IMG/VR virus record: IMGVR_UViG_3300003323_000232
Span: 1 to 41,657 of that record
Reading direction: 5' to 3' (one strand)
DNA from: a virus
DNA length: 41,657 nt
In this document: piece by piece, positions 660 to 41,634 of the stretch
How positions within the stretch are numbered: position 1 is the stretch's first letter
Layout: each line of letters opens with the position of its first letter
Notes under the pieces: model-generated
What the model was told of the DNA's origin: nothing
Databases searched by the model: none
The model's input: the letters and a program-made list of their open reading frames with translations, nothing else
Translations under genes and position numbers: made by a program

Positions 660-1450
660 ACAGGATCGCGTCCGCATTCGTTGAAGGCTTTGTATGTCAA
701 AGGCCAGGACCACTCAAAGTATGCTTCCGCTTGCTTGCATACTTGCTCAATCTCGTATTGAGCAAAGCTCTTGATGCGGGAGTTTGTATGCAAGCAACGT
801 AGCGAGAAGAAGGTTAACCATGTTCGCGGCTTCGCTTCAACATAGCCACTAAAGTAGATGTTGAATGGCAAGTTCATCCGAGCAAGTTCGCGGGCATAGC
901 CTTGCTTCACTTGGCTATCGTATGTCTCCCATGCAAACTGTGCAGACAACTTGCTCATCTTAATAAACTGTTCGTATTCACCATCCGTTGCATGATTCAA
1001 CTGCGGACGCATGGGTTTGAAGCCTTCCGGTTCCATCATTGGGCGTTCGCGGGGCGGCAAATACATCTGGCCTTGCAATACCTTGTATCTGGAGGATTCG
1101 AGATTGAATGAGAAGTCTTCAACTTCTAACCCCATGAATCGGTGTCGTGTTAATTCCCACCATACGAACATCGGCAGTTCCATGTATAATGTCATCAACC
1201 CTTGCTCAAACGGTGTTCCATGCCTATTTTTCATACATGTATGGATAAGTGGATAATATGAACTCATCCATGTATCCGAACCGGCTACTCCACCGAACAG
1301 CCCCTCTTCGTTCTTATGTATTTCACCCGGTTTCAATACCCACGCTCTCCTGGCTATCGTCGCGTCGCTCCCGCATTGGCCGTTTGGAACCTGTACCGTC
1401 AACATGTCGCTGCGGAACTTGACCGGTTGACCCTTGGTGGTAATCAACAT
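656..1450 (-). CDS. thyX: Flavin-dependent thymidylate synthase ThyX
   Basis: ThyX makes dTMP from dUMP using FAD, NADPH and methylenetetrahydrofolate, supplying thymidine for phage DNA synthesis. The 264-aa frame shows the N-terminal GSDATIARRAW segment (about 28-37), RHGTPFEQ (76-83), and the signature RHR at 102-104 followed by S114, N116, S119, R121 and Y122, the family pattern RHR...SxNxxSxRY. RHR and the first Ser are normally two residues apart; here nine residues (FMGLEVEDF) separate them, an unusual insertion in the flavin/dUMP-binding motif. ATG at 1450 is preceded two codons upstream by an in-frame stop, so the start is there or at Met16 (1405). It overlaps the end of the HNH gene and couples to the 79-aa gene. 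Confidence 0.93.
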   Translation of the reverse strand: MLITTKGQPVKFRSDMLTVQVPNGQCGSDATIARRAWVLKPGEIHKNEEGLFGGVAGSDTWMSSYYPLIHTCMKNRHGTPFEQGLMTLYMELPMFVWWELTRHRFMGLEVEDFSFNLESSRYKVLQGQMYLPPRERPMMEPEGFKPMRPQLNHATDGEYEQFIKMSKLSAQFAWETYDSQVKQGYARELARMNLPFNIYFSGYVEAKPRTWLTFFSLRCLHTNSRIKSFAQYEIEQVCKQAEAYFEWSWPLTYKAFNECGRDPV

Positions 1451-1865
1451 ACTTCAACGCCTTTTGCCCTTTGTGTTGGGCATTCCGGAGAACTTCACGA
1501 CCCGACCAGTGCATATACAATGCCCTGATTTCCTGTACCGGGTCGTAAGGTGGTTTTGGGAACGGCTCGGGGTTATGCCCCCGGTGTCCAACGTCGAATA
1601 CGCTTGTTTTGAAGTTGTGGCAGCGTTCGCAAAGTGCCCAAAGATTTGATCTATGGTTGTTCTGATTATCGCCGTCTAAGTGATCTACCGTGTTGCATGG
1701 TGCAACTTCACAAAGTTCACAGACTAGTGTACTAGATAACACTATCTTCCGGAGCGATAGCCAACGGCTAGAGCGGTAGAAAGGGTCAGAAGTCCTAACA
1801 GGAGTTTGTACGACATCGCTAATCTTCGTTCGCGGGAACCCAACTTGGATTTTATCGGTGCCCAT
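1323..1865 (-). CDS. HNH endonuclease
   Basis: A 180-aa HNH nuclease, probably a free-standing homing-type enzyme that nicks or cuts DNA using a metal ion. Motifs: C49-x2-C52, D61-H62, N69 and N74, and C79-x2-C82 (CELC, DHLDGD, NLWALCERC), the zinc-stabilised beta-beta-alpha metal fold. The start at 1865 is chosen because a TTGACA/TAGATT promoter lies just upstream; a further 56 in-frame codons would precede that promoter and look non-coding. The last 128 bases overlap thyX in another frame, unusually long for this compact genome, so a frameshift that extended or replaced the natural end is possible. A perfect dispersed palindrome (1692-1706) encodes V-A-P-C-N three residues before the catalytic DH. 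Confidence 0.8.
   Translation of the reverse strand: MGTDKIQVGFPRTKISDVVQTPVRTSDPFYRSSRWLSLRKIVLSSTLVCELCEVAPCNTVDHLDGDNQNNHRSNLWALCERCHNFKTSVFDVGHRGHNPEPFPKPPYDPVQEIRALYMHWSGREVLRNAQHKGQKALKYVDYHQGSTGQVPQRHVDGTGSKRPMRERRDDSQESVGIETG
1692..1706. repeat. Dispersed palindrome, perfect copy
   Basis: Inside the HNH gene; on the coding strand it reads V-A-P-C-N, just before the catalytic DH pair. Confidence 0.85.
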
Positions 1866-1902
1866 GACGATTTTTCTCGGGTATGGGGTGCCAGAGTGAG
1901 CG

Positions 1903-1931
1903 AATCTAACAAGATTATCGGCAGCTGTCAA
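1903..1931 (-). promoter_or_regulatory. Sigma70-type promoter for HNH-thyX operon
   Basis: On the minus strand TTGACA (1931-1926), a 17-base spacer and TAGATT (1908-1903). Expected transcription start is near 1897, about 30 bases before the HNH ATG at 1865, which supports that start. Confidence 0.7.
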
Positions 1932-2405
1932 GAAAAAGATAAGAAGTTTTATGCACTTAGACTGGGAAGTAAACTTCTCAAACGGTCGCTTACTCCAGAA
2001 AAAGACGTCATTTGGATTGGCGGACAACCACAAGAATGGCTACAAATCCCAGCAGTTTGCAACCGTCATTCGTGACCGCATACTCTTCCCTGGAGTAAGA
2101 ATCGACTAGGCGTACTAGGAGTTGATGCGATTTCGGAAACCGCTCCGGCGGGTGTCTAGAAGACCATGAGCACGAAAAGCCTACGATTCGTTGGATTTGA
2201 GAAGATACTCTAATGGAATTACCCGTAACTCCAGTTTCCCTAGGAGGGGTATTTTGGAAATCAAAGCGTTTGAGGTGTGGCCTCAAGTGATTTGTTTTTG
2301 TTTCCCCGTGCAATAGGAAAAATCAATGTATGTATTATCCCTGATTTCTGTATAGTGTACAGCGGTTTTTAGCCTAGAAAACAAGGCATTTTTGAATATA
2401 ATGTG

Positions 2406-2426
2406 CAACTCCAATACAGTTGGAGT
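2406..2426. promoter_or_regulatory. Candidate operator 1 (CTCCAA inverted repeat)
   Basis: ACTCCAA-tacag-TTGGAGT, arms of seven bases at 2408-2414 and 2420-2426. The left side CAACTCCAAT (2406-2415) is repeated exactly at 2461-2470. Two copies 55 bp apart between divergent operons are typical of repressor operators; the XRE-like protein at 4384-4671 is a candidate reader (inference). Confidence 0.5.
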
Positions 2427-2810: not shown

Positions 2811-4406
2811 ATGCTGGGTAAAAAGAGTGCCGCAAAAACGATCCTAGACAATCTGCCTCCGCTTTATCCTCATCAACAAAAAGCTATCAACCATTTGACA
2901 AGCTATGTCAAACATCCGTGCAAGTGTAAGCGTAAAGCTTATAAAAGTCCGACGGGTACAGGTAAATCGTATCTAGCACTCACCGGATTGGCTTTGCATC
3001 ATGCAACTGGTTGGCTTGTTACGCCGAGTGTTGAAATTATCTACGATATGTTTCGCAAGATTGGGGTTGAGTGCAAGGGGCCGGCGGAGTTAGAGTCGTT
3101 GATGATGAAATATCACATCATCACCCCGATCCGTCTGCGTAATAGGCTAATGGATGGCACGATTCAACCAGAAGACATTGAGATACTATTCATTGACGAA
3201 TGCCACCACGCCGAAGCTGATACGTATAAGTTGTTGAAGGCGTTACTACCAGATGGGGTCATCATAATCGGCTTCACGGCGACCCCTTTTCGTGGCACTC
3301 CACTTGAAACAAAGAAGTTCCGCGATGAATGGGGTGAAGTGTATGAAGTTATTAGTATGGAAGACGCGATTGCACAAGGTTTCTATGCAATGCCGGACGT
3401 AGAAATCTGGCCGCTGGTTGATGATGACCTATGCGAAATTGGTGCCGGCGGTGAATTCGTCGTGTCTTCTGTAACTGCCGAGACAAAGGATAAGTTGCAT
3501 GAAGCAATCAAAACATGCCACCAACGTGGAATATTTACGACTGATGGACTTCCTACTAGACCGACGGTCATTGGAATACATAGCTCCGAAATCATCCCCT
3601 ATTTGGAGCGAGTGGCATCCGATATTGAATACCCAGTCAAACTGGTATTCATCACAGATGAGACACCATCTGCCAAACGTCAGGAATATTTCGCGGGCTG
3701 TCTTGATTTGCATTATGCAATCGTTCACATTAACACAGTATCGGAAGGTGTTGACATTTCCTCGGAGGTATCGCGGTTACGTGTATACATTGATTTTGCG
3801 TCAACAAACTCGCCCCTCCGTTTCACGCAGCGTTTTGGGCGTATTTGTCGATCCCTACTGGAAACTGAATCACAACCCCCGTTGTATATCTGTACGAATC
3901 GAAACGTTGAAAAGCATGGATACATCCTTGAAGGGTGCCTACCGGCTGATGTGGTCAAGAAAGCACAATTGGCTTTCCCCCGACCGACTGAGAGGGTTAA
4001 GGCGAGAGCATTCGGTGTTGAATCGCTAGGCCGAATTAAACCAACGAAGGTATTGTTACAGAATGGGTTAACTGTTTCCGTCTTTGCCGTATCGCAAATG
4101 CAAGGCAACATGAAAGTGCAATATCTTGTTGTTGTCCATCCTAACCAAATTAAACCAGCGTGGCTATATAAAAAATCGTTTAAGGAGGGCGAGGAGATGA
4201 AATGGGGCAAATGGGATATTCTCCGCGATATCCCAACGGAGTTGAAAGGGTTCAAGTCCTCACCTCCGGGACCATTGACAGAAGGGCAACAAAGATTCTG
4301 GAATAGTTGTGCTAAGAAATGTGGTTTGGACGAAACACAACCAATCGATGGTAAAAAGTTTCAACTTATGCCCGCTCTTGTAGATGTGGGGGTGTGCCTT
4401 GCGTGA
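2811..4406 (+). CDS. SF2 DEAD/DEAH-type helicase
   Basis: An ATP-driven DNA helicase of superfamily 2 (ResIII/UvsW-like), first gene of the replication operon and likely acting on phage DNA in replication or recombination. The 531-aa protein shows a Q-like segment (LYPHQQKAINHL), Walker A SPTGTGKS (about 45-52), Walker B DECHH (about 129-133), motif III FTATPFRG (about 155-162) and motif VI QRFGRICR (about 340-347). The start at 2811 is chosen for the strong AGGAGGGG eight bases upstream; an earlier in-frame ATG at 2712 would place the leader hairpin inside the gene. Its end overlaps the XRE gene. Confidence 0.9.
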   Translation: MLGKKSAAKTILDNLPPLYPHQQKAINHLTSYVKHPCKCKRKAYKSPTGTGKSYLALTGLALHHATGWLVTPSVEIIYDMFRKIGVECKGPAELESLMMKYHIITPIRLRNRLMDGTIQPEDIEILFIDECHHAEADTYKLLKALLPDGVIIIGFTATPFRGTPLETKKFRDEWGEVYEVISMEDAIAQGFYAMPDVEIWPLVDDDLCEIGAGGEFVVSSVTAETKDKLHEAIKTCHQRGIFTTDGLPTRPTVIGIHSSEIIPYLERVASDIEYPVKLVFITDETPSAKRQEYFAGCLDLHYAIVHINTVSEGVDISSEVSRLRVYIDFASTNSPLRFTQRFGRICRSLLETESQPPLYICTNRNVEKHGYILEGCLPADVVKKAQLAFPRPTERVKARAFGVESLGRIKPTKVLLQNGLTVSVFAVSQMQGNMKVQYLVVVHPNQIKPAWLYKKSFKEGEEMKWGKWDILRDIPTELKGFKSSPPGPLTEGQQRFWNSCAKKCGLDETQPIDGKKFQLMPALVDVGVCLA

Positions 4407-4671
4407 ATTCAAACCCGAAGTGATGAAGAAATTCATTGCAAAATGGTGCGTTGACAACAAAGTTTCGTATAAACAGCTGGCGTTAGCGTCCGGAGTGAAA
4501 AAAGCAACATTGTATAGTTTCATGTCTACCGATCGGGCACAAGGTATGAATATTCGTTATGTGTTTGCATTAGCTGAATCAATGAAAGTGTCCATAGACA
4601 TGCTAACAGGTAGGGAGTTGCATTATGCAAATGCAGACGATAGGGGACGAACAACATCCGATTCGTGCTAG
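4384..4671 (+). CDS. XRE/Cro-C1-type helix-turn-helix regulator
   Basis: A small DNA-binding protein (95 aa). The segment from MKKFIAKWC to LTGREL (about 14-78) matches the five-helix Cro/C1 fold: recognition region KQLALASGVKKATLYSFM, then NIRYVFALAESMKVSIDML, the usual fourth and fifth helices. It overlaps the helicase end by 23 bases; a TTG near 4399 is an alternative start. It may act as repressor or early-late switch protein. Candidate targets are the CTCCAA dyads at 2.4 kb or, less likely because so numerous, the dispersed palindrome. One palindrome copy (4617-4631) lies in its 3' end and holds the next gene's start. Confidence 0.75.
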   Translation: MWGCALREFKPEVMKKFIAKWCVDNKVSYKQLALASGVKKATLYSFMSTDRAQGMNIRYVFALAESMKVSIDMLTGRELHYANADDRGRTTSDSC

Positions 4672-5497: not shown

Positions 5498-5922
5498 TTC
5501 GTATGGTCGCACTTGGCCGTATGTCTTGGCGTCCCTCGTTGCTTGGCAAGCAACTAGGTAATAGTCAGATGTACGAAACGTGGGGGTACTATGTGCATGG
5601 CGGTTGCATTGTGCAACTATCGGCACCGATCACTGATATCCTAACGTTACCGGAGATGTCAAAGCCTGAACCATTTAAACTCGGCAGTGCAGTTGAGACG
5701 AGGGACGGGAAAGAATGGTGGTCAAAAGGTATCCTCGTAAGGTGTAACGGGCAATATGCATGGGTGGCTAGTTTGAATCCAGAAATTCCGGACTACCCCA
5801 TAATCCGTTGCGTACTGATGGATTATGTCATAACCAAAGTGAACCCATACTACAACACAGACTTAAGGAAACTGGCAAATGGCAAAGGCGAAACCGCAAG
5901 CGGAAACGGCCCAACTGGCTAA
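5494..5922 (+). CDS. Hypothetical protein, 142 aa
   Basis: No family recognised. It is a soluble, mixed alpha/beta protein, rich in Trp and Tyr in two stretches (MYETWGYYVHGG and DGKEWWSKG). It couples to the nuclease by ATGA and overlaps the next gene by 44 bases. A perfect palindrome copy (5603-5617) falls in it and encodes G-C-I-V-Q. By position it probably supports replication or recombination; that is inference only. Confidence 0.65.
   Translation: MIRMVALGRMSWRPSLLGKQLGNSQMYETWGYYVHGGCIVQLSAPITDILTLPEMSKPEPFKLGSAVETRDGKEWWSKGILVRCNGQYAWVASLNPEIPDYPIIRCVLMDYVITKVNPYYNTDLRKLANGKGETASGNGPTG
5603..5617. repeat. Dispersed palindrome, perfect copy
   Basis: In the 142-aa hypothetical gene, encoding C-I-V-Q: a reading frame different from that of the HNH copy. 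Confidence 0.85.
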
Positions 5923-6664
5923 AACTGACCTGTTCGCGGTCATCAACAAAGGAATTGAAGTCCGCAAGCAAGAGACGGTAGTAAGTACCGGAACGGCAAC
6001 TAGTCCATATGTACAATTCCTCCACAACGCCGCTAAGAACTACCGGCAAGTTCTCACGGCCCTCGGGAATCTGGCCGACGGAACGCCGGTACTGGTGAAG
6101 GACAACGAATTCACCCTACTACAGCCATTCGAATTCCTGTTCGTGCCGTCTTGGTTCCAATATTACGGCCGTAGCGACACACAGGGCGATATCCTAGAAA
6201 TCCTGGATATTGTGGGCCGCAAACCGGATGGAACGGATTGGGCGGAATTCGTCGATGCTGTATTGATCTTGGTATTGCCGAATAACGCCCTCCAACCGGC
6301 CCGAATCCGCTATCGAGGTCCAAAGATTCCGGCCTTCCGACAAGCCCATGCGTCATGGCAAGACGACTGTTGTGCGGATGACTGGTCGGCCCGCAGTAAG
6401 GCCCACAAGGCACAAGCTGATACAGGTATGCCGTCATGGTCTTGGCTGTTGCATACTGCAACCATGACGCACAAGATTCCGAAGAATCCAAAAGCCCGGC
6501 CATATGACCAGTGTGATAGCACTAGCAAGATGACCCCGCCGGGTGTACTCGCATTGTTGAAGCGGTTGTCTACGCAAGCTGAATTCGCAGAGTGTATGCA
6601 AGCATGTATCAATGACCATAACGGACGTGTCCAGCAACTTCTAGCTTTGGGGACCAGCAAGTGA
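5879..6664 (+). CDS. Hypothetical protein, 261 aa, possibly abundant
   Basis: No family recognised. The N terminus is Ala/Lys-rich (MAKAKPQAETAQLAK), the core beta-rich, and the C-terminal third helical with several Cys. Its codons are visibly richer in C-ending choices than those of the flanking genes, which can mark a highly expressed product. It stands between an exonuclease and a primase-helicase, a common place for a single-strand DNA-binding or annealing protein, so that role is suspected but no OB-fold or recombinase motif is visible. The end overlaps the next start as GTGA. Confidence 0.75.
   Translation: MAKAKPQAETAQLAKTDLFAVINKGIEVRKQETVVSTGTATSPYVQFLHNAAKNYRQVLTALGNLADGTPVLVKDNEFTLLQPFEFLFVPSWFQYYGRSDTQGDILEILDIVGRKPDGTDWAEFVDAVLILVLPNNALQPARIRYRGPKIPAFRQAHASWQDDCCADDWSARSKAHKAQADTGMPSWSWLLHTATMTHKIPKNPKARPYDQCDSTSKMTPPGVLALLKRLSTQAEFAECMQACINDHNGRVQQLLALGTSK
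6448..6462. repeat. Dispersed palindrome, perfect copy
   Basis: In the 261-aa gene, encoding L-H-T-A-T, the third of the three reading frames used by this repeat. Confidence 0.85.
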
Positions 6665-9129
6665 AACTCGTCGTACAGCCTACCGCCATTAAGAAGACTG
6701 ATAAATTCAGGGTCACTAAGTATGATATGCTAGATAGGTTAATGGTGGAAGTGCTGTACGCATTCGTTGACCCGAAAGACTTTGAACGTGCGGAAAAATC
6801 GCTTGGCGTAAGTGAAACTATCTTACGCCAAGTATTGCTAGAGCAAGCTAAGAAACCGAAAGAGCCGTATGTGTATGTGTCCGACAACCGTGGAATCCGC
6901 CCACTATTTAGGATTCGCGGCGAACACGAGCGAACGACCTCCGCTCGTGTTGTGGGGGATATTAAGGCAGCGTTGCATGACGCAACACCCGGACAGGTTA
7001 TCGAGTGGGATAATACGATTTGGGTTTGCTGCCTTGATATCGACTTTCCGAATGATGCACCTTCGGCAGACCAGTTCCATACTTTCGCAACAACAGTCAA
7101 GCCAGCCCCTCAATTCTACTGGCACTCGCGTAGCGGTGTCGGTATGCATATGGTATACTATGCCGCCAACGTCTTTGACGCCGATGAACTCGCTGCAATC
7201 GCAGGATATAACATCCAGAGACGGTTTCCTAACTGCCGAGTGGAATTTTTACATAGAACACGGGCAGTTCCCAGCGGAACGCAACTTACAGAGCAGACAC
7301 AGGATTCCGACCCGGTTGGTTTACGGAGTCTGCTTACAACGTTTACAGAAGTTGATATCAACGCATATTTGGAGTCTAATAATTGGAAAGTGGGTCAACG
7401 TTTACCACACTCAGACTGTCCGGTTAATCCAAGTGAACGGGCGAAAGCAAACAGTAATCCGGTCATTATCAACGAAGATTGCGTATACTGTTACGTCTGT
7501 GCAGCGGACGGAATACGTCTCGGTTCACCTCGTCCGGGTAGATTCCCATTCGCTGCATTATCTGGAAAGCGTGTTAATACTCAAATTTCCCGGTGCATTG
7601 AAAACTTGGTGCATTGGGGACACGCACGACATGTAATGTCTGGCAAGGTTACATCATGCATCCTAGCGAGGAAAGTATATGCGGCTCTGCTTAAACTGCA
7701 ATACGGCGATGATGATAGAATTCAAGCGGTTTTTTGTGCTGGCGAACCAAATGGACTTGTCCGCTATACAGGATATTGGGCGGACAACAGAGGCTCTATT
7801 GTTGATTTGCCGAAGGGTAGTTCGATCTTGCGTTCACTGCCACATTGCCAAGACCGAAAGGCTAATGGAATACTTACAACAAACCCGGTCAACGTGGAGT
7901 GGCTTTCACAAGCCGTTGACCAGTCCTGTAGAGGCTACTATCCAGTAATCCCAATCTACGGTATACAGATAACACAATTCCAAGCACTTCCGGAAGACAA
8001 GATTTATAGTATCCAAACTAGCAGGGCATTAATCAATGAGCAATATGAGTCTCGTAGACCGTGTTATGTACCAACAGCAGAGAGACAGGATATCGAGCAT
8101 TCATGGAAAGTGCTGGAGGGCATATATCCAGGACTTAACAGAGCAATTATACAAGCTCTTATCGCAGCACGGGGATGCATCGAACATAGGAACGGATTGC
8201 CACCTATGTTTGCAATCACGGGTGTTACCGGTTCAGGTAAAACGTCACACGTTGAGATTGCTGCGTCGATTATCGGTGACTCTAGCTTCAAGGTGTACCT
8301 TAATCGAGACAGAGATAGATTTATGAACGAGGTGACGACTGCAAAAGCACAGTCGGGTTTTATCAACCTCGATGAAATTTACAAGTTTGCAACGCAAGCC
8401 GGTATGACGGCGACGGAAGGTATGGAGAGTCTACTATCTTTCACTGAAACTAGCATGGTGTATCGTATCCATATTGGCGGTATCCCATTCGGCCATTTGC
8501 CGGTATTTGTATTCACCGACGCCTCCATGCCGGATGAGGTGAAGCAGCACGAACAAATTGGCAGGCGTGTATTTCATGCCCACTTACTTTCCCAGGTTTC
8601 ATGGGAAAAAACTTTGGCGGCTTCTGGTATTGGGGAAACTCAATACCTACGGGTAAATGGGAGTGATGAGGTTATTGCATCATGCAACGCAATCCTATCA
8701 CAAGTGATAGACGATTTCTTCTTGACACCTGCAACAGACTTTGAAGATGTTTGCGATATACTAGGCTTCAAGAAATTGCAGCATAGCGAAGTGAACGACG
8801 ATAGAACGTTCCTTATGCAAGAGTTGTATAACGCTGTATGCAAAGCACCGAACATTACCGATCCAAACGATAAGAGAAGATTCACACCACCCGGATTCAA
8901 GATTTGTATCATGATTGATTCCGATCCTATATACCGTGCATTCGCTCAATGTCAGACGGATAAAGAACGCGGCGGTATTGATATCCGTATGTTCGCGGAG
9001 AATGACATACAACAAAAGCTAGGCTTGAAGACGCCATGCAAGCTTGAAGTACGCAAGCATGGCAGTAAGTTTGCAATCCGCTTTGTATCCTCTACCGACC
9101 CGAAACTCGTTAACGAGGGCTTACGATGA
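6661..9129 (+). CDS. Primase-helicase (AEP primase plus D5/SF3-like ATPase)
   Basis: A bifunctional replication protein of 822 aa that should prime synthesis and unwind the fork. The N-terminal part has the archaeo-eukaryotic primase pattern: CLDIDFP with a DxD metal site (about 124-130), then HSRSGVGMHMVYY (about 155-167). A Cys-rich segment follows (CPVNPSE, CVYCYVCAADG, about 252-283), likely zinc-binding. The C-terminal ATPase has Walker A GVTGSGKT (about 520-527), Walker B GFINLDE (about 565-571) and a GRR arginine finger candidate (about 634). The start is GTG overlapping the previous stop. Exact family (D5-like or other AAA+) is uncertain. Confidence 0.82.
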   Translation: MKLVVQPTAIKKTDKFRVTKYDMLDRLMVEVLYAFVDPKDFERAEKSLGVSETILRQVLLEQAKKPKEPYVYVSDNRGIRPLFRIRGEHERTTSARVVGDIKAALHDATPGQVIEWDNTIWVCCLDIDFPNDAPSADQFHTFATTVKPAPQFYWHSRSGVGMHMVYYAANVFDADELAAIAGYNIQRRFPNCRVEFLHRTRAVPSGTQLTEQTQDSDPVGLRSLLTTFTEVDINAYLESNNWKVGQRLPHSDCPVNPSERAKANSNPVIINEDCVYCYVCAADGIRLGSPRPGRFPFAALSGKRVNTQISRCIENLVHWGHARHVMSGKVTSCILARKVYAALLKLQYGDDDRIQAVFCAGEPNGLVRYTGYWADNRGSIVDLPKGSSILRSLPHCQDRKANGILTTNPVNVEWLSQAVDQSCRGYYPVIPIYGIQITQFQALPEDKIYSIQTSRALINEQYESRRPCYVPTAERQDIEHSWKVLEGIYPGLNRAIIQALIAARGCIEHRNGLPPMFAITGVTGSGKTSHVEIAASIIGDSSFKVYLNRDRDRFMNEVTTAKAQSGFINLDEIYKFATQAGMTATEGMESLLSFTETSMVYRIHIGGIPFGHLPVFVFTDASMPDEVKQHEQIGRRVFHAHLLSQVSWEKTLAASGIGETQYLRVNGSDEVIASCNAILSQVIDDFFLTPATDFEDVCDILGFKKLQHSEVNDDRTFLMQELYNAVCKAPNITDPNDKRRFTPPGFKICIMIDSDPIYRAFAQCQTDKERGGIDIRMFAENDIQQKLGLKTPCKLEVRKHGSKFAIRFVSSTDPKLVNEGLR

Positions 9130-12202: not shown

Positions 12203-12217
12203 GTTGCACCATGCAAC
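12203..12217. repeat. Dispersed palindrome, perfect copy
   Basis: Non-coding copy, one base after the stop of the 112-aa gene and 15 bases before the terminator stem. Confidence 0.85.
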
Positions 12218-12799: not shown

Positions 12800-13179
12800 T
12801 GGATGATGCTATCTGGGGATTGTGTAATATGACACCCCCAGAACTGAAAGGGCAAACGTCGTTCATTTGGACAATGGGTGATCGTTTGCTTTGGACAGCA
12901 AAACAATTCGATGACATCAGCTTTACGCTGCTGTTTATCGATATGAAGACGAATTTCCCAGACGTTGTATTGCCAGCGGGTTTGTCGTGGGAAACGTCTC
13001 CTGACCTATCGTTGCTTAATGCAACGCGGGAACTTGAACGGCAGATGTTGAATAACGAGGTATTTAACCAACTCCGCCCATCCCCTCCCTGGATGAATTT
13101 AACCCTTATCCGCAAAGTGGTATCTCTCTATGTCGCGGCAAGCACAACAACGACAACAAGCACTACACCCGCTCCCTGA
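12799..13179 (+). CDS. Hypothetical protein with Thr-rich tail, 126 aa
   Basis: No family recognised. The start MDDAIWGLCN is set by the TAATG overlap with the previous gene. The C terminus is a low-complexity run, ASTTTTTSTTPAP, of the same kind as the linkers in the Cys-rich tail protein at 21828-23489; this may reflect shared extracellular or linker use. A palindrome variant (13011-13025) lies in it. It overlaps the next gene by 50 bases. Confidence 0.6.
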   Translation: MDDAIWGLCNMTPPELKGQTSFIWTMGDRLLWTAKQFDDISFTLLFIDMKTNFPDVVLPAGLSWETSPDLSLLNATRELERQMLNNEVFNQLRPSPPWMNLTLIRKVVSLYVAASTTTTTSTTPAP

Positions 13180-23489: not shown

Positions 23490-23490
23490 G

Positions 23491-27553: not shown

Positions 27554-27566
27554 GATGCAAAATCCT

Positions 27567-29935: not shown

Positions 29936-29967
29936 GTTTTCCCTTAGTTGCATGATGCAATTATTGG

Positions 29968-32150: not shown

Positions 32151-32165
32151 GTTGCATAGTGCAAC
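32151..32165. repeat. Dispersed palindrome, perfect copy in a gene gap
   Basis: Occupies most of the 25-base gap between the stop at 32167 and the 44-aa gene start at 32141, as at 24878. Confidence 0.85.
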
Positions 32166-32867: not shown

Positions 32868-33508
32868 TGGGTGAACCCCGCCAGTTTCAGTTGATTTATG
32901 CAACGATAAAACATGGGGTCGTATTTAGATCGGTCGCCGTAATACATGTTAGTGACAAGGTACTTAACCGCTAGTTTGTACGCGGCGGGTACGTCGTCTG
33001 GGTTTGTTGAGGAACTGACCCCGTAGCCGGCGGAGAAGGTGACACGGACGGATTGTAGACGGAACGGGTCGGTGAATGGCCAGACTTGGCCTTTCGTCGG
33101 AATGACACGACCTGGACAACGAGCATTAGCAACTTGATAATTTGCCGGATCAAGTACATAATCAACCCCCTGTACGTCAGTGTATGAAATATCAGTAACA
33201 GTCTTTACTGGGTAGCGTGGAAGCTTGAATTGAGACGATTGGAAATCATACGGCCATAGTTGCGTACCGTAATACATAGGGAAACGATCCAACGTCATAC
33301 GATATGTGGTTGGAGTTGCAGTGTGCATCGTCAAATTTTCGATTTGTTCCGTCGCGTCCTTCACCAACTGCCTTAATTCTTCATCTTCCGCATCCCGTCC
33401 ACGAATGCGTAACCAAGCCTTAATACTGCCCGGCCCGTCGTCTGGTGTCAGATAGACGGGCAGGACAGTAGGCTTAGTAACCACTTCCAACGCGAATTTG
33501 CCATTCAT
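32855..33508 (-). CDS. Head-tail connector protein, gp6/gp8-like, 217 aa
   Basis: The Phage_connect_1 family pattern is clear: an N-terminal helical part (DEELRQLVKDATEQIENLT), then MTLDRFPMYYG, YPVKTVTDISYTD, VLDPANYQV and VRVTFSAGYG, ending in a helix (AAYKLAVKYLVTNMYYGDRS). It forms the ring below the portal. It overlaps its neighbours by only a few bases. Confidence 0.85.
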   Translation of the reverse strand: MNGKFALEVVTKPTVLPVYLTPDDGPGSIKAWLRIRGRDAEDEELRQLVKDATEQIENLTMHTATPTTYRMTLDRFPMYYGTQLWPYDFQSSQFKLPRYPVKTVTDISYTDVQGVDYVLDPANYQVANARCPGRVIPTKGQVWPFTDPFRLQSVRVTFSAGYGVSSSTNPDDVPAAYKLAVKYLVTNMYYGDRSKYDPMFYRCINQLKLAGFTQWSQ

Positions 33509-33846: not shown

Positions 33847-33862
33847 AACAAACCTTGTTGCG

Positions 33863-34198
33863 TTATGCAACGAAATGGGACGGGTTGTTGTTCAGGTTCT
33901 TACGCATATCGAACCCGATAAGCAACGCTGCCGGTTGGCCGGTGATGGCAACTTTGATATACTGGTATTTCACAGCGGTAACGGTTACCGCTTTCACGCC
34001 GGAAAACGTATACAAAGTGGTTGACGTTGAGAAGTTGTCGTTAGAGCCGATAATCGACCCAGCAATATCGGCTCCATTCTGTGCGGCAACGAAAATACAA
34101 TCCGTTTCGCTGGTGAACATTTCTTTGGACGGGTCGTTGTTTGCAGCAACGACCGCGACCGACTTAACGAACTGTCCGAGGTTCGGGTGAGGTTGCAT
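33863..34198 (-). CDS. Hypothetical head protein, 111 aa
   Basis: The ATG (34198) is within a palindrome variant (34192-34206) and AAGGTG lies upstream. The protein is beta-rich and low in charge (VKAVTVTAVKYQYIKVAIT), placed just after the capsid gene as small decoration or stabilising proteins often are. No family recognised. Confidence 0.62.
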   Translation of the reverse strand: MQPHPNLGQFVKSVAVVAANNDPSKEMFTSETDCIFVAAQNGADIAGSIIGSNDNFSTSTTLYTFSGVKAVTVTAVKYQYIKVAITGQPAALLIGFDMRKNLNNNPSHFVA

Positions 34199-34206
34199 TA
34201 TGCACC

Positions 34207-35637: not shown

Positions 35638-35651
35638 ATTATACTATACCG
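35638..35651 (-). promoter_or_regulatory. CGGTATAGTATAAT promoter-like element, capsid gene
   Basis: On the minus strand CGGTATAGTAT (35651-35641) runs into TATAAT (35643-35638), a perfect -10. The palindrome at 35651-35665 occupies the -35 region. It is about 40 bases from the capsid ATG (35601), so capsid may get extra transcription that a palindrome-binding protein could block or aid. Confidence 0.55.
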
Positions 35652-36231
35652 TTGCACCATGCAACTTAAGGAAATTTGCAACCTGAGACAGACGGACACG
35701 AGGTTCCGACTTAGGGATTTCTCTCCGGGTTCGTTGAGCGATATTAGCGGAGGTTGCTAGATAAGCCGGGTCTGGACAGAAACACACTTCAAACAATTCT
35801 GCTTTGGAGATAGTACGACAAGCGATATCGTCAATACGCTCCCACTTGTCACTATTCGCTCGGAAGTCGAACGACATACCTTGGATATCACGGCGGTCTA
35901 CATGCTGAATCAGTTCAGTGCCTACAGCGGTATTCGGAATTGATGCCCGAATATGTAGACCGTCCGAAGTATCCGTAATGACAAGCGTTCCGCCTTGCGT
36001 TGTCGCAATCAACTTGTCGCGGTTGTGATCGACCGTACAACAGATATTACGCTTGCCTAGCGACTCCGAAAACGCACCAGGGAGGAACTGTTCCTTAAAA
36101 TCGTTGTTCCAACCGAGGGTTTGTGACCACGATCGGTACGGACAAGCAATCCCTTCGATAAATACCCCGCCGTTGTCCGGTGCGTTCCGTTTCTCCAGTT
36201 TCGTAATAAAGAATTGTGTTTGCAGTTGCAT
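35644..36231 (-). CDS. HK97-type prohead protease, 195 aa
   Basis: A herpes-assemblin-like serine protease that matures the capsid by removing the delta domain. VDHNRDKLIA holds the catalytic His and GMSFDF the catalytic Ser. It starts MQLQTQFFITKLEKR, with the ATG within a perfect palindrome (36225-36239) and AAGGGG upstream. Its C-terminal codons L-H-G-A-T are another perfect palindrome (35651-35665). The gene order protease then capsid is standard. Confidence 0.9.
   Translation of the reverse strand: MQLQTQFFITKLEKRNAPDNGGVFIEGIACPYRSWSQTLGWNNDFKEQFLPGAFSESLGKRNICCTVDHNRDKLIATTQGGTLVITDTSDGLHIRASIPNTAVGTELIQHVDRRDIQGMSFDFRANSDKWERIDDIACRTISKAELFEVCFCPDPAYLATSANIAQRTRREIPKSEPRVRLSQVANFLKLHGATV
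35651..35665. repeat. Dispersed palindrome, perfect copy at -35 of capsid promoter
   Basis: Encodes L-H-G-A-T at the protease end and covers the -35 position upstream of TATAAT at 35643-35638. Confidence 0.85.
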
Positions 36232-36239
36232 AGTGCAAC
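36225..36239. repeat. Dispersed palindrome, perfect copy at a start codon
   Basis: Contains the start ATG of the prohead protease (36231-36229), right after its AAGGGG ribosome site. Confidence 0.85.
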
Positions 36240-36622: not shown

Positions 36623-38035
36623 TTAACCCTTAAATTGGAGTGAGTTGCATAGTGCAACGTAGAGTGATTCATCAGCGTCCGGCATTGTAGCCTTAAAGAC
36701 TTCCATTGCCGTAACCTTATCAGTCCCCAAACTACGAATTAAGACAATAGTGTCATTAATAACCTTCGGGTCGACTGGTTTACCCGGCTTCTCTTCAAGT
36801 GGGATCATGGTTGACGGGGTAACTCGACTATCACCCACTTCCGGCGGCATTAGTTGCTCGCGTTCCTTTCGTTTGATATCATTCAGCGTGTAATATCCTA
36901 GATTCCGCTGCTTTGAATACAAATCCCACTTCGTATTTTCCTCCATAACGACAATCCGCGATACATCAGGCTTATAGAAGTAACCAGATACTTGCTCCGG
37001 CATTGTAAGCAATTTCCGCTTCATCTCGCCCGCCCATGTCTCGATCCACGGTTCCAGTGTGTATGTTTTGAAATCCAAACCTTGCGATTCCGTGGTAGAG
37101 AAATTCGCTTCGTCCAAGTCATACAGCAAATGTGGAGGGACGCTAAGCCAACGAGCAATTTCGCGTACTTGGAACTGCCGCGTTTGGAGGAATTGACCAT
37201 CTTCCGGAGGGATACCAATCTGTTGGTATTTCATGCCCTCATCCAACACAACAACGCGGCGGGCACGTTGAGAACCACCGGCAACGTCCTCAATCTCCTC
37301 CCTAATATTGTCCTTCGCCTTTAAATCGAGGTCGGCAGGGTGCGTGACAATGCCGCCCGGAACCGCATTATTGCCAAAGAAAGACGCACCGAACTTCTCT
37401 GTACTAAGTCCGAGAGCGATTGATTCTCTCGCACACGCAACAACTGAATAGCCTTGCAGTCCATCAAATCCATAACCTGCAATGTGCAAGATTTCGTGTG
37501 ACTTGTATGTAGCGTCCGAGTCGCCGGGTGCAGTCGCTTTGTACTCATATATTACACTCCCGTCGGTCTTTTTCTTATCATACTTCGGGGTTACTTGGTT
37601 CGGCGGAACTGGCCAAAGGGCAACTGGTCTATCGTCTTTGTCTCGTTCAATCCATGCGTAACCGTTACCCCATGTTAATGCATGGGCGGTAAGCATATCT
37701 GTAAATTGAAACCAAGTCATATTGGGGTTTGGCCCGACAGAGAAGAAGAGGTTTGTATTGTGGTCGAATTCTGGTGCGTCGCCTTCCTCTCTGCCCTCTT
37801 TCCAGACAGACCAAAGGACAAGAGCGATACTCCGGGCGATTAAATTCACGCCACGAAAGTATGCAGCGTAGTTATATGCGTTATTTTCGTCTACATATAA
37901 CCCGGCCTGTGTTTGCCCCTTCATACCGAACAATTCAATCAACGCTGGGTCGCGTAGTGGAACACCAGCGTATTTCAAAGCCCGTTTTGCGACAAAGCGG
38001 GCGGCTTTTTGCCACTGACGGGCTAACCAGTTCAT
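36623..38035 (-). CDS. HK97-type portal protein, 470 aa
   Basis: It forms the dodecameric gate at one vertex for DNA entry and exit. The family pattern is plain: NNAYNYAAYFRGVNLIARSI, LTAHALTWGNGYAWIERD, LWPVPPNQVTP, EILHIAGYGFDGLQGYS, RQFQVREIARWLSVPPHLL and the C-terminal domain to LQFKG. The start overlaps the terminase stop as TAATG. A perfect palindrome (36644-36658) encodes V-A-L-C-N just before its end. Confidence 0.94.
   Translation of the reverse strand: MNWLARQWQKAARFVAKRALKYAGVPLRDPALIELFGMKGQTQAGLYVDENNAYNYAAYFRGVNLIARSIALVLWSVWKEGREEGDAPEFDHNTNLFFSVGPNPNMTWFQFTDMLTAHALTWGNGYAWIERDKDDRPVALWPVPPNQVTPKYDKKKTDGSVIYEYKATAPGDSDATYKSHEILHIAGYGFDGLQGYSVVACARESIALGLSTEKFGASFFGNNAVPGGIVTHPADLDLKAKDNIREEIEDVAGGSQRARRVVVLDEGMKYQQIGIPPEDGQFLQTRQFQVREIARWLSVPPHLLYDLDEANFSTTESQGLDFKTYTLEPWIETWAGEMKRKLLTMPEQVSGYFYKPDVSRIVVMEENTKWDLYSKQRNLGYYTLNDIKRKEREQLMPPEVGDSRVTPSTMIPLEEKPGKPVDPKVINDTIVLIRSLGTDKVTAMEVFKATMPDADESLYVALCNSLQFKG
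36644..36658. repeat. Dispersed palindrome, perfect copy
   Basis: In the last codons of the portal gene, encoding V-A-L-C-N, and 25-40 bases before the next gene start. Confidence 0.85.
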
Positions 38036-39690
38036 TATATTGCCAGTGTGAGGGGGCGACGGTCGGAATACTTTGATTTGAAAGTCGGCTCTTGATTAAT
38101 AGCCATGTATACAGACATGAGCAGGGCAGCAAAACCGTCGATTTTCCCCTTACTAGCCTTCTTATCGAGCTTGCGGTTGCCATTGCTGTCTGTAGTCGTC
38201 ATACAGTTGGTTAGCATCCACTCCATGATTGGGTTTGCATCATGCAACAGAATGCCGCCAATAATCAAGTCTTCAAGGCACTTCAACGGTTCATGTAGGT
38301 TCGGGCCGTTATAACCGACTAAGCGGAGAATGTCCTTCTTCCAAAGCTGCAATTCCTTGAGCTTAGTTTGCATACTATACACGAAGCGAGTTGCATTGAA
38401 CTTGTCAACCCCGATCCCAGTAACCGGTACAGGGTCATCAATTAGACTCGCTATGATATCGTCCTCAACAACCTCCTGTCGAGCAACAGGACCGGGAATG
38501 AGTTTTAGCAACCCCATATCCGCCCAAAGCTGATAACGATCCTTGTTGATCTTATTCGCTGGTTCCGACGGTGCCCAAAACGAGAATTTAGCCTGGATAC
38601 GCTCTTGACCCTGGAAAGATACTTTGCGAATGTCGGCAGTGGCGGATAGGTCCAAATGGTTAGACAAGTCAACCGCGATGAACCGCATTGGGTCTTTGGC
38701 TAGTACCGGCTCGTCTTCCGTAGGTTGCATGGTGCAACCATTCCAGTATTTCACTTCAAGCCACGTCGATTCGTGTTTGGTCGGCTTGTTCAATCTGTAA
38801 CGGAGGAAATCCGACTTATCAGCCGGATTCTTCAACGCCTCTTGATACGCTTTCCTGAACTCAACTTCATTAAGGCTCGCTCCCCATGAAGGATTCACAC
38901 GCTTCCATACGTTTTCGTCTTCCCAGTCTTCGTAGTCTTCCATTGCGTATACGCAAGGAAGCGTATAGATATCAATCACTTCCGATTTCTGAATTCTCCG
39001 GGCGTGGCTGAATCGCTCCCACCAAAGCAAAGACTCGTCCAATTCACCAGCGGTGGAAAGGACAAAACAAATAGGTTGGTCCCTAGCAGCACCTCCGTAA
39101 CGGAGGGCTTTCCACAAATCACGATTAGGCTGAGTATGCAATTCATCAAACAGCAAGCCATGAATATTAAGCCCCTCATTTCGATACCCATCAGCGGAGA
39201 GAACTTTGTATTCACCGTCAATCTCTGGAAAGCGGATGAGTTTCTTAGACTCCCGTACTTTTAGAATCTCTTCTAGGTCCGGACTACGCCGGACCATTGA
39301 TACCGCTTCTTTATAGACAATCCCGGCTTGCTCTCTATCGCAGGCGGCACTATAAACATGAGGGCTAGGTTCGCCATCACCACAAAGCAAGTACAAAGCC
39401 ACACCAGCCATGAGAGTAGATTTGCCATTCTTTTTCGGAATCCAGATTTCGACATTTTGAAACCGCCTCTTGCCGTTAGGCATTTTCCATCCGAAGGCCG
39501 GAGCGATAATACCCTCCCATTGCCAAGGCAGCAATTCAAAGGGTTTATCAGCATTCCGGCCTTTGGGATGCTTTAGGAACGTCGTGAAGAACTCCCGTAC
39601 ACGCAATGCGGCGTCAAGATCGAAGTAGCAACCTTTCCGTACTGCTTCTTCGTCCGATGCGTTCCGAATCCAGTTAGTATAAGGTTGCAT
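38035..39690 (-). CDS. terL: Terminase large subunit, 551 aa
   Basis: The ATPase-nuclease motor that packages DNA. ATPase: PKKNGKSTL (Walker A, about 85-93), GLLFDELH (Walker B) and VLSTAG (coupling motif). Nuclease: AVDLSNHLDLSA with the first Asp, GIGVDK, and KIDGFAALLMS with the final Asp. The ATG lies inside palindrome variant 39684-39698 as TAATG shared with the TerS stop. A perfect palindrome (38724-38738) encodes G-C-T-M-Q-P in the linker between ATPase and nuclease domains. Confidence 0.95.
   Translation of the reverse strand: MQPYTNWIRNASDEEAVRKGCYFDLDAALRVREFFTTFLKHPKGRNADKPFELLPWQWEGIIAPAFGWKMPNGKRRFQNVEIWIPKKNGKSTLMAGVALYLLCGDGEPSPHVYSAACDREQAGIVYKEAVSMVRRSPDLEEILKVRESKKLIRFPEIDGEYKVLSADGYRNEGLNIHGLLFDELHTQPNRDLWKALRYGGAARDQPICFVLSTAGELDESLLWWERFSHARRIQKSEVIDIYTLPCVYAMEDYEDWEDENVWKRVNPSWGASLNEVEFRKAYQEALKNPADKSDFLRYRLNKPTKHESTWLEVKYWNGCTMQPTEDEPVLAKDPMRFIAVDLSNHLDLSATADIRKVSFQGQERIQAKFSFWAPSEPANKINKDRYQLWADMGLLKLIPGPVARQEVVEDDIIASLIDDPVPVTGIGVDKFNATRFVYSMQTKLKELQLWKKDILRLVGYNGPNLHEPLKCLEDLIIGGILLHDANPIMEWMLTNCMTTTDSNGNRKLDKKASKGKIDGFAALLMSVYMAINQEPTFKSKYSDRRPLTLAI
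38724..38738. repeat. Dispersed palindrome, perfect copy
   Basis: In the interdomain linker of TerL, encoding C-T-M-Q, the same frame as 14341. Confidence 0.85.
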
Positions 39691-39698
39691 TATGCACC
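39684..39698. repeat. Dispersed palindrome, one mismatch, at TerS stop / TerL start
   Basis: The overlapping stop and start (TAATG) of TerS and TerL are inside this repeat. Confidence 0.8.
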
Positions 39699-40142: not shown

Positions 40143-40686
40143 TGTACTTTGCTCGCAACTTATCAAGTAAGTCATTACGTCGTCGTAACAACTCCGCTGG
40201 CGGTCGTTGATTAGTTTGTGCCTGTATTGCCCGGCACTCGCCAATCAGCTTATGACAGCGGATAATATCTGGGTCAATCGCAGTATGGTCATAATATACT
40301 ATACCTGGTAAGGTGTCTTCAAACGGCATATTTTCGTCGTCAGATGAGAGGTCGGTAAAGGTACTAGTTATTGTATTGCGTTTTACTCGGAATTCTATTT
40401 CCAGGAATTCGGCAATATTGCGGCGTGCGTGATAGAAACACCACTCACGGAAATTGCCAGTCTTTTTCGCAACATCATATCGACACGCTTGCGGAATGGC
40501 ACGAGTAATTGCGTATGATTCAACTTCGGTCCAGTATTTGTATACTATCTTGCCACTAATCTTAACATGGAGTGCCCTTGCTTGGCGTGTAGTAACAATT
40601 AATACTTTACCACCTTCCTCAGTCAGCTTACCGTCCTTCACGAACCGCCCTTGGTCGCCGTTGTCCCATTCCGGATTCTGTTGCAT
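40078..40686 (-). CDS. Putative sigma-factor-like regulator, 202 aa
   Basis: ATG within a perfect palindrome (40680-40694), AGGGGG upstream. The middle, TGNFREWCFYHARRNIAEFL (about 77-96), resembles sigma70 region 2 (a core-binding helix with Phe-x-x-Trp and ARRNI), and TDLSSDDENMPFEDTLP resembles the acidic linker to region 4; the C terminus is helical but lacks a clear region 4 turn. It stands before terminase at the top of the late operon, where a late-gene activator would fit. The match is by eye and incomplete; a small unknown DNA-binding protein is the alternative. Confidence 0.5.
   Translation of the reverse strand: MQQNPEWDNGDQGRFVKDGKLTEEGGKVLIVTTRQARALHVKISGKIVYKYWTEVESYAITRAIPQACRYDVAKKTGNFREWCFYHARRNIAEFLEIEFRVKRNTITSTFTDLSSDDENMPFEDTLPGIVYYDHTAIDPDIIRCHKLIGECRAIQAQTNQRPPAELLRRRNDLLDKLRAKYNGNTDSTTTLERVPERMRVLV
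40296..40305 (-). promoter_or_regulatory. GGTATAGTAT promoter-like element before terS
   Basis: On the minus strand GGTATAGTATATTATG, nearly the capsid-gene element GGTATAGTATAATATG. It is inside the sigma-like gene, about 155 bases before the TerS start. It would serve terminase and later genes. Confidence 0.45.
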
Positions 40687-40694
40687 GATGCAAC
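40680..40694. repeat. Dispersed palindrome, perfect copy at a start codon
   Basis: Contains the ATG of the sigma-like gene (40686-40684) just after its AGGGGG ribosome site. Confidence 0.85.
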
Positions 40695-40697
40695 CCC

Positions 40698-40994
40698 CTA
40701 ATACTGACGTGAGAATTCGAATGTTTTGTCATTGCGGGTGAGAGTAAACTTATCGCCGACTCGCGTATACTTCCATGTCTCTGCACCTACCGTCAGTGTA
40801 TTGTGTTGTGGGCCGTATTTGAACTGGAGGTATTCACGGCCGTTGTGGATAGAGTTATCCTTGATCGTTAGTGTCCCACTTAAGCATTTCGGCGGATCGT
40901 CACTAGTACAACACCATACACCGTCAATCGTCGGAAATTTCATTTCATATGGGATAGGTGCAGAGAGTGTTAGGGCTAGTGCTAGGGTCTGCAT
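40698..40994 (-). CDS. Putative exported beta-barrel-like protein, 98 aa
   Basis: MQTLALALTLSAPIP is a short hydrophobic start that may be a signal peptide, though it has no Lys or Arg before it. The rest resembles a small lipocalin-like barrel: IDGVWCCTSDD, SGTLTIKDN, YLQFKYGP, LTVGAETWKYT and KFTLTRNDKTFEFSRQ, alternating strands. AAAGGA lies upstream. No named family recognised; early superinfection-type surface proteins can look like this. Confidence 0.62.
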   Translation of the reverse strand: MQTLALALTLSAPIPYEMKFPTIDGVWCCTSDDPPKCLSGTLTIKDNSIHNGREYLQFKYGPQHNTLTVGAETWKYTRVGDKFTLTRNDKTFEFSRQY

Positions 40995-41323
40995 TCGAGT
41001 AATCCTTTGAACTCTTTGAAGTCCGTAAAGAGACGTAGAAATACTTGTTCACAGTTGTTCTTAACGAATTGCTCTACTTTGGCAAGCAACTCCATGCTGA
41101 CCCACATGTGGGGTTCGCATTCGAACGTGAACGTGTGGATAGGTTGATCCGTGTTCTGTTTGTAATACACCTCAATTTGCCACATATACCCTGTATTGTT
41201 GCACGATGCAACCCATAGCTCGAATTCGCCAACATCACACATGACGTTCAAGACCGGGTTGATGATATCTGGCGTGAAGTCCCCACCTTCAAGCAATTGC
41301 CATTTCTGGATAGGACTACTCAT
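40982..41323 (-). CDS. Hypothetical protein, 113 aa (paralogue B)
   Basis: Clearly related to the neighbouring 104-aa protein: W at the start (KWQLLEGG), FELWVASCNN, WQIEVYYKQN, ELLAKVEQFVKNN and a closing FKEFKGLL, in the same order and spacing. So the pair arose by tandem duplication. Probably a small alpha/beta domain; no named family. ATGA-coupled to its paralogue. A perfect palindrome (41198-41212) encodes V-A-S-C-N. Confidence 0.68.
   Translation of the reverse strand: MSSPIQKWQLLEGGDFTPDIINPVLNVMCDVGEFELWVASCNNTGYMWQIEVYYKQNTDQPIHTFTFECEPHMWVSMELLAKVEQFVKNNCEQVFLRLFTDFKEFKGLLECRP
41198..41212. repeat. Dispersed palindrome, perfect copy in paralogue B
   Basis: Encodes V-A-S-C-N at the same place as V-A-L-R-N in paralogue A (41527-41541). 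Confidence 0.85.
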
Positions 41324-41634
41324 AATGCACCTCGGAATTTACTGTAGGCGTCGAACATAGCTGAGAATATTACGCTCATTTTGTCGCGTAGAAGTTGTTC
41401 AACTTCGGCGAACAGTTCATGGCATGGTGCGTAGCGATGCGGAATTTTGGCATTATCTGCGAATATTCGGCAGACGTGTTGCTTCTCCGGATAATACACT
41501 TCAATCAGCCACTCACACGTCTTCTCGTTGCGTAATGCAACGTATATCGTAAACCCTTCTACTCTCGCTCCTGCACTAATAGCACTACATACTTTCCACT
41601 CGTGTTTTGGCGACTTTTGTACCGAGCGGTTCAT
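41320..41634 (-). CDS. Hypothetical protein, 104 aa (paralogue A)
   Basis: Tandem paralogue of 40982-41323: EWKVCSAI, FTIYVALRNE, WLIEVYYPEKQ, ELFAEVEQLLRDK and YSKFRGAL align one for one. GAGGTG stands before the ATG. Its palindrome (41527-41541, one mismatch) is kept at the homologous position. It is the first gene of the late run visible in this window; a promoter may lie past the right edge. Confidence 0.68.
   Translation of the reverse strand: MNRSVQKSPKHEWKVCSAISAGARVEGFTIYVALRNEKTCEWLIEVYYPEKQHVCRIFADNAKIPHRYAPCHELFAEVEQLLRDKMSVIFSAMFDAYSKFRGAL
41527..41541. repeat. Dispersed palindrome, one mismatch, in paralogue A
   Basis: Encodes V-A-L-R-N at the position homologous to 41198-41212. 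Confidence 0.8.

What the first reader, a model, noticed from the sequence alone, without database searches (positions are those of the whole stretch)
987..41541. A 15-bp palindrome is scattered through the whole phage genome
GTTGCA-NNN-TGCAAC is found 21 times with perfect arms and 24 times with one mismatch, versus well under one expected for both classes together. The spacing is fairly even: no gap between copies exceeds about 2.3 kb. It is on no one strand (palindromic), in no one gene class, and is not clustered like an origin, CRISPR or integration site. It must be recognised by something as DNA (or RNA). I know of no characterised operator of this form. Precedents for scattered sites are L5-type stoperators (bound by repressor), KorB sites on plasmid RK2, Noc sites and cyanobacterial HIP1.
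Basis: partly seen in the sequence, partly recalled or inferred. Interest (0 to 1): 0.95.

Follow-up and report, generated by a model that had tools for sequence, protein, structure and literature searches.

The report
Phage genome studded with parS-like palindromes
This virus of bacteria carries about 55 evenly spaced copies of one 15-letter DNA palindrome, mostly inside its genes, which look like docking sites for a DNA-clamp protein of the ParB family that the virus itself encodes and may use to coat or mark its own genome.

Summary
The 41,657-bp phage record has 21 perfect, 25 one-mismatch and 10 two-mismatch copies of GTTGCA-NNN-TGCAAC. Refined, the site is GTTGCAYNRTGCAAC, 22 bits, with no information in the flanks. 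No dinucleotide shuffle exceeded 7 copies (mean 2.4) and no codon-preserving shuffle exceeded 5 perfect copies. Sites lie mostly inside genes, in all three codon phases, and are spaced more evenly than random. One-mismatch copies break base pairing in 24 of 25 transcripts, so the site is read as DNA. It is not a host-wide motif in any genome sampled, and no other IMG/VR phage was found with a dense array of it.

Best explanation: sites for the phage's own orphan ParB-like protein (15628-16701). The half-site matches the parS half at 5 of 6 positions, with one extra central base pair. The protein's specificity residues fit the G and A of a parS-type site. Sites flank its gene. Cluster O mycobacteriophages have a comparable unexplained array and also encode a ParB-fold protein. 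The binding itself is inferred: other ParB-like phages lack such arrays, and a small regulator-like protein (4384-4671) is a rival. What the array does (coating, compaction, protection, silencing) is not shown.

The parts
15628..16701 (+). Orphan ParB/Noc/KorB-like protein, 357 aa: N-terminal region with GxxR (GNTR) and ENxxR (ENVSR) motifs, central ParB helix-turn-helix; proposed binder
   Evidence: PF17762 HTH_ParB E 4e-11; Noc structure 7ng0 E 2e-10; TIGR00180 E 2e-14, just below its cut-off; phrog_4715 ParB-like E 4e-15
4384..4671 (+). Small 95-aa protein weakly resembling phage transcriptional regulators; rival binder
   Evidence: phrog_4779 E 0.002; no Pfam hit
15596..15610 (.). site, 1 mismatch, 17 bp upstream of the ParB-like gene
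16719..16733 (.). perfect site, 17 bp downstream of the ParB-like gene
17829..17843 (.). perfect site embedded in a 33-bp terminator-like hairpin between convergent genes
987..1001 (.). site, 1 mismatch (in thyX)
1692..1706 (.). perfect site
2993..3007 (.). site, 1 mismatch
4617..4631 (.). site, 1 mismatch
5603..5617 (.). perfect site
6448..6462 (.). perfect site
6972..6986 (.). site, 1 mismatch
8674..8688 (.). site, 1 mismatch
9940..9954 (.). perfect site (in DNA polymerase gene)
10861..10875 (.). site, 1 mismatch
11417..11431 (.). perfect site
12203..12217 (.). perfect site, intergenic
13011..13025 (.). site, 1 mismatch
13579..13593 (.). perfect site
14341..14355 (.). perfect site
14854..14868 (.). 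perfect site
16897..16911 (.). site, 1 mismatch
19536..19550 (.). site, 1 mismatch
20019..20033 (.). perfect site
20621..20635 (.). site, 1 mismatch
21037..21051 (.). site, 1 mismatch
21637..21651 (.). site, 1 mismatch
22632..22646 (.). site, 1 mismatch
24878..24892 (.). perfect site
26733..26747 (.). perfect site (in tape measure gene)
27547..27561 (.). site, 1 mismatch
28298..28312 (.). site, 1 mismatch
28487..28501 (.). site, 1 mismatch
29947..29961 (.). site, 1 mismatch
30998..31012 (.). site, 1 mismatch
32151..32165 (.). perfect site, intergenic
33315..33329 (.). site, 1 mismatch
33857..33871 (.). site, 1 mismatch
34192..34206 (.). site, 1 mismatch
35651..35665 (.). perfect site
36225..36239 (.). 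perfect site
36644..36658 (.). perfect site (in portal gene)
38234..38248 (.). site, 1 mismatch (in TerL gene)
38724..38738 (.). perfect site (in TerL gene, next to a gap in the alignment with a related TerL)
39684..39698 (.). site, 1 mismatch (at TerL start codon)
40680..40694 (.). perfect site (covers the start codon of the 40078-40686 ORF)
41198..41212 (.). perfect site
41527..41541 (.). site, 1 mismatch
358..372 (.). weak site, 2 mismatches
3494..3508 (.). weak site, 2 mismatches
3707..3721 (.). weak site, 2 mismatches
7648..7662 (.). weak site, 2 mismatches
11580..11594 (.). weak site, 2 mismatches
17876..17890 (.). weak site, 2 mismatches
23032..23046 (.). weak site, 2 mismatches
25102..25116 (.). 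weak match, 2 mismatches, doubtful
26133..26147 (.). weak site, 2 mismatches
32890..32904 (.). weak site, 2 mismatches

Best explanation
The palindromes are loading sites for a DNA-clamp protein of the ParB/Noc/KorB type that the phage encodes (15628-16701) without a detectable ParA. A dimer reads the two half-sites GTTGCAY. By analogy with ParB, Noc and KorB it would then close around the DNA and slide away in a CTP-dependent way. With a site about every 0.75 kb and a reported KorB sliding range of up to 1.5 kb, this would cover the whole phage genome but not the host chromosome. Likely purposes are self-marking, compaction or protection of the replicating genome, or genome-wide control of transcription. 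Shown here: the sites, their symmetry, spacing, sharp 15-bp edges and DNA-level (not RNA) recognition; the ParB-family membership of the protein; the absence of the motif from sampled hosts. Inferred: that this protein binds this site, clamp loading and sliding, and the purpose.
For: (1) The phage encodes a ParB/Noc-family protein: HTH_ParB E 4e-11, Noc 7ng0 E 2e-10, TIGR00180 E 2e-14. It keeps the GxxR and ENxxR motifs. (2) The half-site GTTGCA matches the parS half TGTTTCAC at 5 of 6 dyad-registered positions, chance 1.4% for a random 6-mer (consensus parS from PMC7383237). There is one extra base pair at the dyad. (3) By the published ParB/Noc code (R173 in ParB, Q173 in Noc reading A1, R201 in Noc reading C6; PMC7383237), the aligned residues here are K and S, plus the permissive K184. 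These fit a site with G1 and A6 rather than A1 and C6, and GTTGCA has G1 and A6. (4) Two of the few intergenic sites immediately flank the gene, 17 bp before and 17 bp after it. (5) Cluster O mycobacteriophages have a genome-wide palindrome with the same 3-bp spacer (TGTTCGG-N3-CCGAACA, 36-38 copies in Firecracker) and encode a ParB_N protein, gp94. (6) The site carries about 22 bits, against 9.8 needed to find 46 sites in the phage alone and 17 in an assumed 6-Mb cell, which suits a tag that separates phage from host DNA. (7) Even spacing and indifference to genes and promoters.
Against: No binding was shown. Other phages with ParB-like proteins (Gordonia phages Kiko, MagicMan, Dmitri; Mycobacterium phage Adler; ctl617) have no such array, so a ParB is not sufficient. 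Record G001 has 16 scattered TGTTGC-N5-GCAACA-type sites but no detected ParB. That record may be incomplete. Several parS-contacting residues differ (K171 to I, S172 to D, N178 to R, R204 to C by the alignment). PF02195 is below its cut-off. A 1.4% chance resemblance to parS is only moderate evidence. AlphaFold without an alignment gave no usable model (pLDDT 42).
Confidence: 0.55

Rival explanations
1. The sites are bound by a repressor, such as the small regulator-like protein at 4384-4671, as genome-wide operators or stoperators that silence phage genes.
For: The same 15-bp word serves as an ordinary operator elsewhere: clustered copies between a divergent pair of small HTH-like genes in records G004 and G006, and paired copies 25-38 bp apart in several bacterial genomes. 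The protein has a weak phage-regulator match (phrog_4779 E 0.002), and a site lies in the 3' end of its gene.
Against: Most sites are inside genes, far from promoters, in both transcription units. The sites are symmetric, unlike L5 stoperators, which are asymmetric and oriented (PMC4351075). No integrase was detected, so a prophage-silencing role has no support. Even spacing is not expected for promoter operators.
Confidence: 0.2
2. A host protein (nucleoid-associated or replication/repair factor) recognises the sites, and the phage has accumulated them to exploit or evade it, as with HIP1 or KOPS-like motifs.
For: Even, gene-independent spacing resembles chromosome-organising motifs. The host is unknown, so its genome could not be checked directly.
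Against: None of 119 genome stretches with the motif is dense. Ten whole genomes have one copy each, and 392 genomes of the phylum of G018 (Planctomycetota, judged from the Phycisphaerales title of L192) have at most two. A complete IMG/VR scan for one spacer variant found 60 stretches and no dense array; other phages of the same host should share a host-driven motif.
Confidence: 0.12
3. The palindromes act as RNA hairpins in the transcripts.
For: Each arm pair could form a 6-bp stem; the copy at 17829 lies in a terminator-like hairpin.
Against: 24 of 25 one-mismatch copies break the stem in the transcribed strand, only one keeps a G-U pair, and no symmetric compensated variant exists.
Confidence: 0.02
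4. The sites serve another sequence-specific process such as DNA packaging, recombination or protection from a restriction-like defence, through an unrecognised phage protein.
For: About half of the phage genes have no family; G001 has a comparable array and no recognisable ParB.
Against: No candidate protein. The palindromic site has no polarity to guide packaging or recombination, and a 12-bp specified sequence is longer than usual restriction-modification sites (general knowledge).
Confidence: 0.11

Closest known systems
Cluster O mycobacteriophage 17-bp repeats (Corndog, Firecracker; PMC4351075)
   Same: Genome-wide, symmetric palindrome with a 3-bp variable centre, more than 30 copies, partly inside genes, not at promoters; the phages also encode an orphan ParB-fold protein (Firecracker gp94, PF02195). 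Function unknown there too.
   Different: Sequence TGTTCGG-N3-CCGAACA; copies concentrated at one genome end and spaced about randomly (CV 0.91); about two thirds intergenic or near gene starts; unrelated phage (no convincing protein match); its ParB lacks a PF17762 match.
KorB and its OB sites on plasmid RK2 (PMC11790492)
   Same: ParB-family CTPase clamp with several sites spread over a mobile element; slides up to 1.5 kb; works as a repressor.
   Different: Far fewer OB sites, of a different sequence and tied to promoters (from memory, not tested); works with KorA, none seen here; no exact OB site in the window.
Noc and its NBS sites
   Same: Orphan ParB paralogue with many scattered sites and no ParA; best structural sequence match of the phage protein.
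   Different: NBS is TATTTCCC-GGGAAATA (A1, C6); this site has G1, A6 and one more central base; no NBS in the window; Noc acts on the cell's own chromosome.
ParB-parS
   Same: Half-site 5 of 6 identical to parS; ParB HTH.
   Different: No ParA (PF13614), no canonical parS, sites spread over the whole genome rather than clustered at a centromere.
L5-type stoperators
   Same: Tens of sites across a phage genome.
   Different: Stoperators are asymmetric and oriented with transcription; these are symmetric, mostly intragenic, in a phage with no detected integrase.
HIP1 of cyanobacteria
   Same: Highly iterated palindrome.
   Different: HIP1 is abundant in host genomes; this motif is at chance level in all cellular genomes sampled.

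Membership tests
ParB/Noc/KorB clamp-and-site system | ParB-type HTH protein encoded by the element | tested here: met
ParB/Noc/KorB clamp-and-site system | CTPase-fold motifs (GxxR, ENxxR) in the N-terminal domain | tested here: inconclusive
   GNTR and ENVSR present in the alignments; PF02195 hit E 0.006, below cut-off
ParB/Noc/KorB clamp-and-site system | Palindromic site with a parS/NBS/OB-like half-site | tested here: inconclusive
   5 of 6 identical to the parS half, chance 1.4%; no exact parS, NBS or OB
ParB/Noc/KorB clamp-and-site system | Specific binding of the protein to the site and NTP-dependent clamp closure | not testable with these tools
   needs purified protein
ParABS partition system | ParA ATPase partner | tested here: not met
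   no PF13614 match in the record; no other ParA family was searched
L5-type stoperators | Asymmetric sites oriented with transcription | tested here: not met
   symmetric 15-bp site; 40 of 46 sites touch coding DNA
L5-type stoperators | Temperate phage with immunity repressor and integration or partition system | tested here: not met
   no tyrosine integrase PF00589, no ParA; serine integrase not searched separately
Cluster O 17-bp repeat arrays | TGTTCGG-N3-CCGAACA repeats in a Corndogvirus | tested here: not met
   different arm sequence and no convincing shared protein in blastp
HIP1-like host-wide palindrome | High frequency in cellular genomes | tested here: not met
   true host unknown

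The most novel reading that the evidence does not exclude
A phage-encoded, ParA-less ParB-family clamp is loaded about every 750 bp along the phage genome, so that a sliding nucleotide-dependent sheath marks, compacts or shields the whole phage DNA as self inside the cell; Cluster O mycobacteriophages evolved an analogous array independently.
Probability: 0.33. Interest if true: 0.88.

Novelty: new variant of a known kind. Interest (0 to 1): 0.72.

Why it matters
The repeats of Cluster O mycobacteriophages have been described as of unknown function, and orphan phage ParB-like proteins mostly have no assigned role. A second, unrelated phage with an even denser and more regular array, a parS-like half-site and an orphan ParB gives a concrete, testable link between the two. 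If true, some phages wrap their genomes in a sliding clamp, a new way of organising or protecting viral DNA, and the sites would be a portable tag for phage DNA in living cells.

Tried and rejected
RNA hairpins. Host HIP-like motif. Canonical parS, NBS or OB sites (none). The idea that any phage with a ParB has an array: rejected, five ParB-like phages lack one. Record G011 also has a repeated palindrome (AATCCC-N2-GGGATT) but it is confined to about 12 kb (taking the contig as circular) and lies at gene boundaries, so it is probably an operator or promoter set. G003 and G005 share a longer palindrome built on the same core, mostly between genes, also operator-like. Relatives of the phage: only a near-identical 4.8-kb contig and distant portal/TerL homologues without arrays; no relatives of polymerase, primase or the ParB-like protein in IMG/VR. 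AlphaFold of the ParB-like protein alone failed. G001's proteins gave no convincing Pfam match in those tested.
Full report
Observation. The motif counts are as reported, with 25 rather than 24 one-mismatch copies. Aligning the 46 sites with 0-1 mismatches gives GTTGCAYNRTGCAAC with sharp edges and no information in ten flanking bases on either side, about 22 bits. A weight-matrix scan finds 55 sites above 12 bits against 0.6 expected. A codon-preserving shuffle gives at most 5 perfect copies in 300 trials against 21 observed. Gaps between neighbours are neither very short nor very long: 2 below 300 bp against about 13 expected at random, and 1 above 2 kb against about 5. CV is 0.52, reached by none of 5,000 random placements.

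Placement. 92% of the record is coding, and 40 of 46 sites touch coding DNA. They occur in all three codon phases, reading VAxCN, LHxAT or CxMQ. In TerL the peptide encoded by a perfect site sits next to an alignment gap relative to a Streptococcus phage TerL and is not conserved, so protein function does not explain the site. One copy at 17829 is built into a terminator-like hairpin between convergent genes.

DNA, not RNA. In the transcribed strand 24 of 25 one-mismatch copies lose a base pair, only one keeps a G-U pair, and no symmetric compensated variant exists anywhere in the window. The pattern is that of two half-sites, each tolerating a change, as for a dimeric DNA-binding protein.

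Not the host. Several are pairs 25-38 bp apart, as ordinary operators. Ten whole genomes have one copy each, and 392 genomes of one phylum have at most two. A complete IMG/VR scan for GTTGCATAGTGCAAC, present five times in the window, found 60 stretches, none part of an array. The host is unknown, so this argues against, but does not exclude, a host-specific factor.

Candidate binder. The phage has a ParB/Noc-family protein at 15628-16701 and no ParA of family PF13614. Consensus parS is TGTTTCAC-GTGAAACA and NBS is TATTTCCC-GGGAAATA; they differ at positions 1 and 6, and the Noc residues Q173 and R201 read A1 and C6 (PMC7383237). In the alignment the phage protein has K at 173, Y at 179, K at 184 and S at 201. 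This reading of the alignment is mine. It fits a site with G1 and A6, which GTTGCA has. The phage site equals two parS-like halves with one extra central base pair. Other contact residues differ, as would be needed for the altered base 4 and the wider dyad. Sites lie 17 bp before and 17 bp after the gene.

Precedent. Cluster O mycobacteriophages carry more than 30 copies of TGTTCGG-N3-CCGAACA; the authors report unknown function, predict a dimeric binder unrelated to transcription initiation, and mention a parB-like domain protein without linking the two (PMC4351075). I re-found 36-38 copies in Firecracker and the ParB_N domain in gp94. I found no convincing protein shared by the two phages; the ParB-like proteins align only marginally (E 0.06).

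Limits. Five other ParB-like phages have no array. Another dark record, G001, has 16 copies of a similar palindrome, (T)GTTGC-N5-GCAAC(A), at about 2.6-kb spacing and no recognisable ParB. So the ParB link rests on fit, not on a clean correlation. The mechanism of clamp loading and sliding is taken from ParB, Noc and KorB (PMC11790492), not shown here. No close relative with diverged sequence was available to test whether sites move while the array persists.

Conclusion. A real, strong, genome-wide array of symmetric protein-binding sites, most likely loading sites for the phage's own orphan ParB-like protein. It works like a Noc/KorB multi-site system; membership is not claimed until binding is shown. 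It is a new variant of the Cluster O type of array, denser and more regular than that precedent.

Noticed in passing
L159-L161 (G011, IMGVR_UViG_3300044535_000237), sites at 1600 and 49274-57090; also L090: Ten copies of a different palindrome, AATCCC-N2-GGGATT, about 1 kb apart at gene boundaries in one region; looks like a phage operator or promoter set.
   Followed up: partly
L132-L134 (G001, IMGVR_UViG_3300032213_002319), 3212-42971: A phage record without convincing Pfam matches in the proteins tested (one open frame is 4,204 codons) has 16 scattered copies of (T)GTTGC-N5-GCAAC(A), several inside that giant frame; binder unknown.
   Followed up: partly
L135-L137 (G003 and G005, both from metagenome 3300008517): Long palindrome of consensus TAGRGTGTTGCATAATGCAACACYCTA repeated mostly between genes in two contigs; operator-like, with the same core as the window motif.
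   Followed up: partly
G004 16558-17461 and G006 4651-5362 (L138, L141): A divergent pair of small HTH-like genes, 76% and 61% identical between two phages, with GTTGCATNATGCAAC copies between them: an ordinary operator of the same word.
   Followed up: partly
L153, L154, L155 (Gordonia phages Kiko, MagicMan, Dmitri): The ParB-like gene lies close upstream of a gene annotated as FtsK-like DNA translocase in all three phages.
   Followed up: no
window 1-266: The first bases (TCATTCTGCGTGGTACTCCAAGATAGT) recur at 247, a short direct repeat at the contig end.
   Followed up: no
window 18120-19499: Secreted-looking S8 (subtilisin) protease with a Cys/Gly/Pro-rich tail, followed by two glycosyltransferase-like genes, unusual cargo for a 42-kb phage.
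   Followed up: no
window 21828-23582: 584-aa protein with several TTTTST-type threonine-rich linkers between Cys-rich repeats.
   Followed up: no
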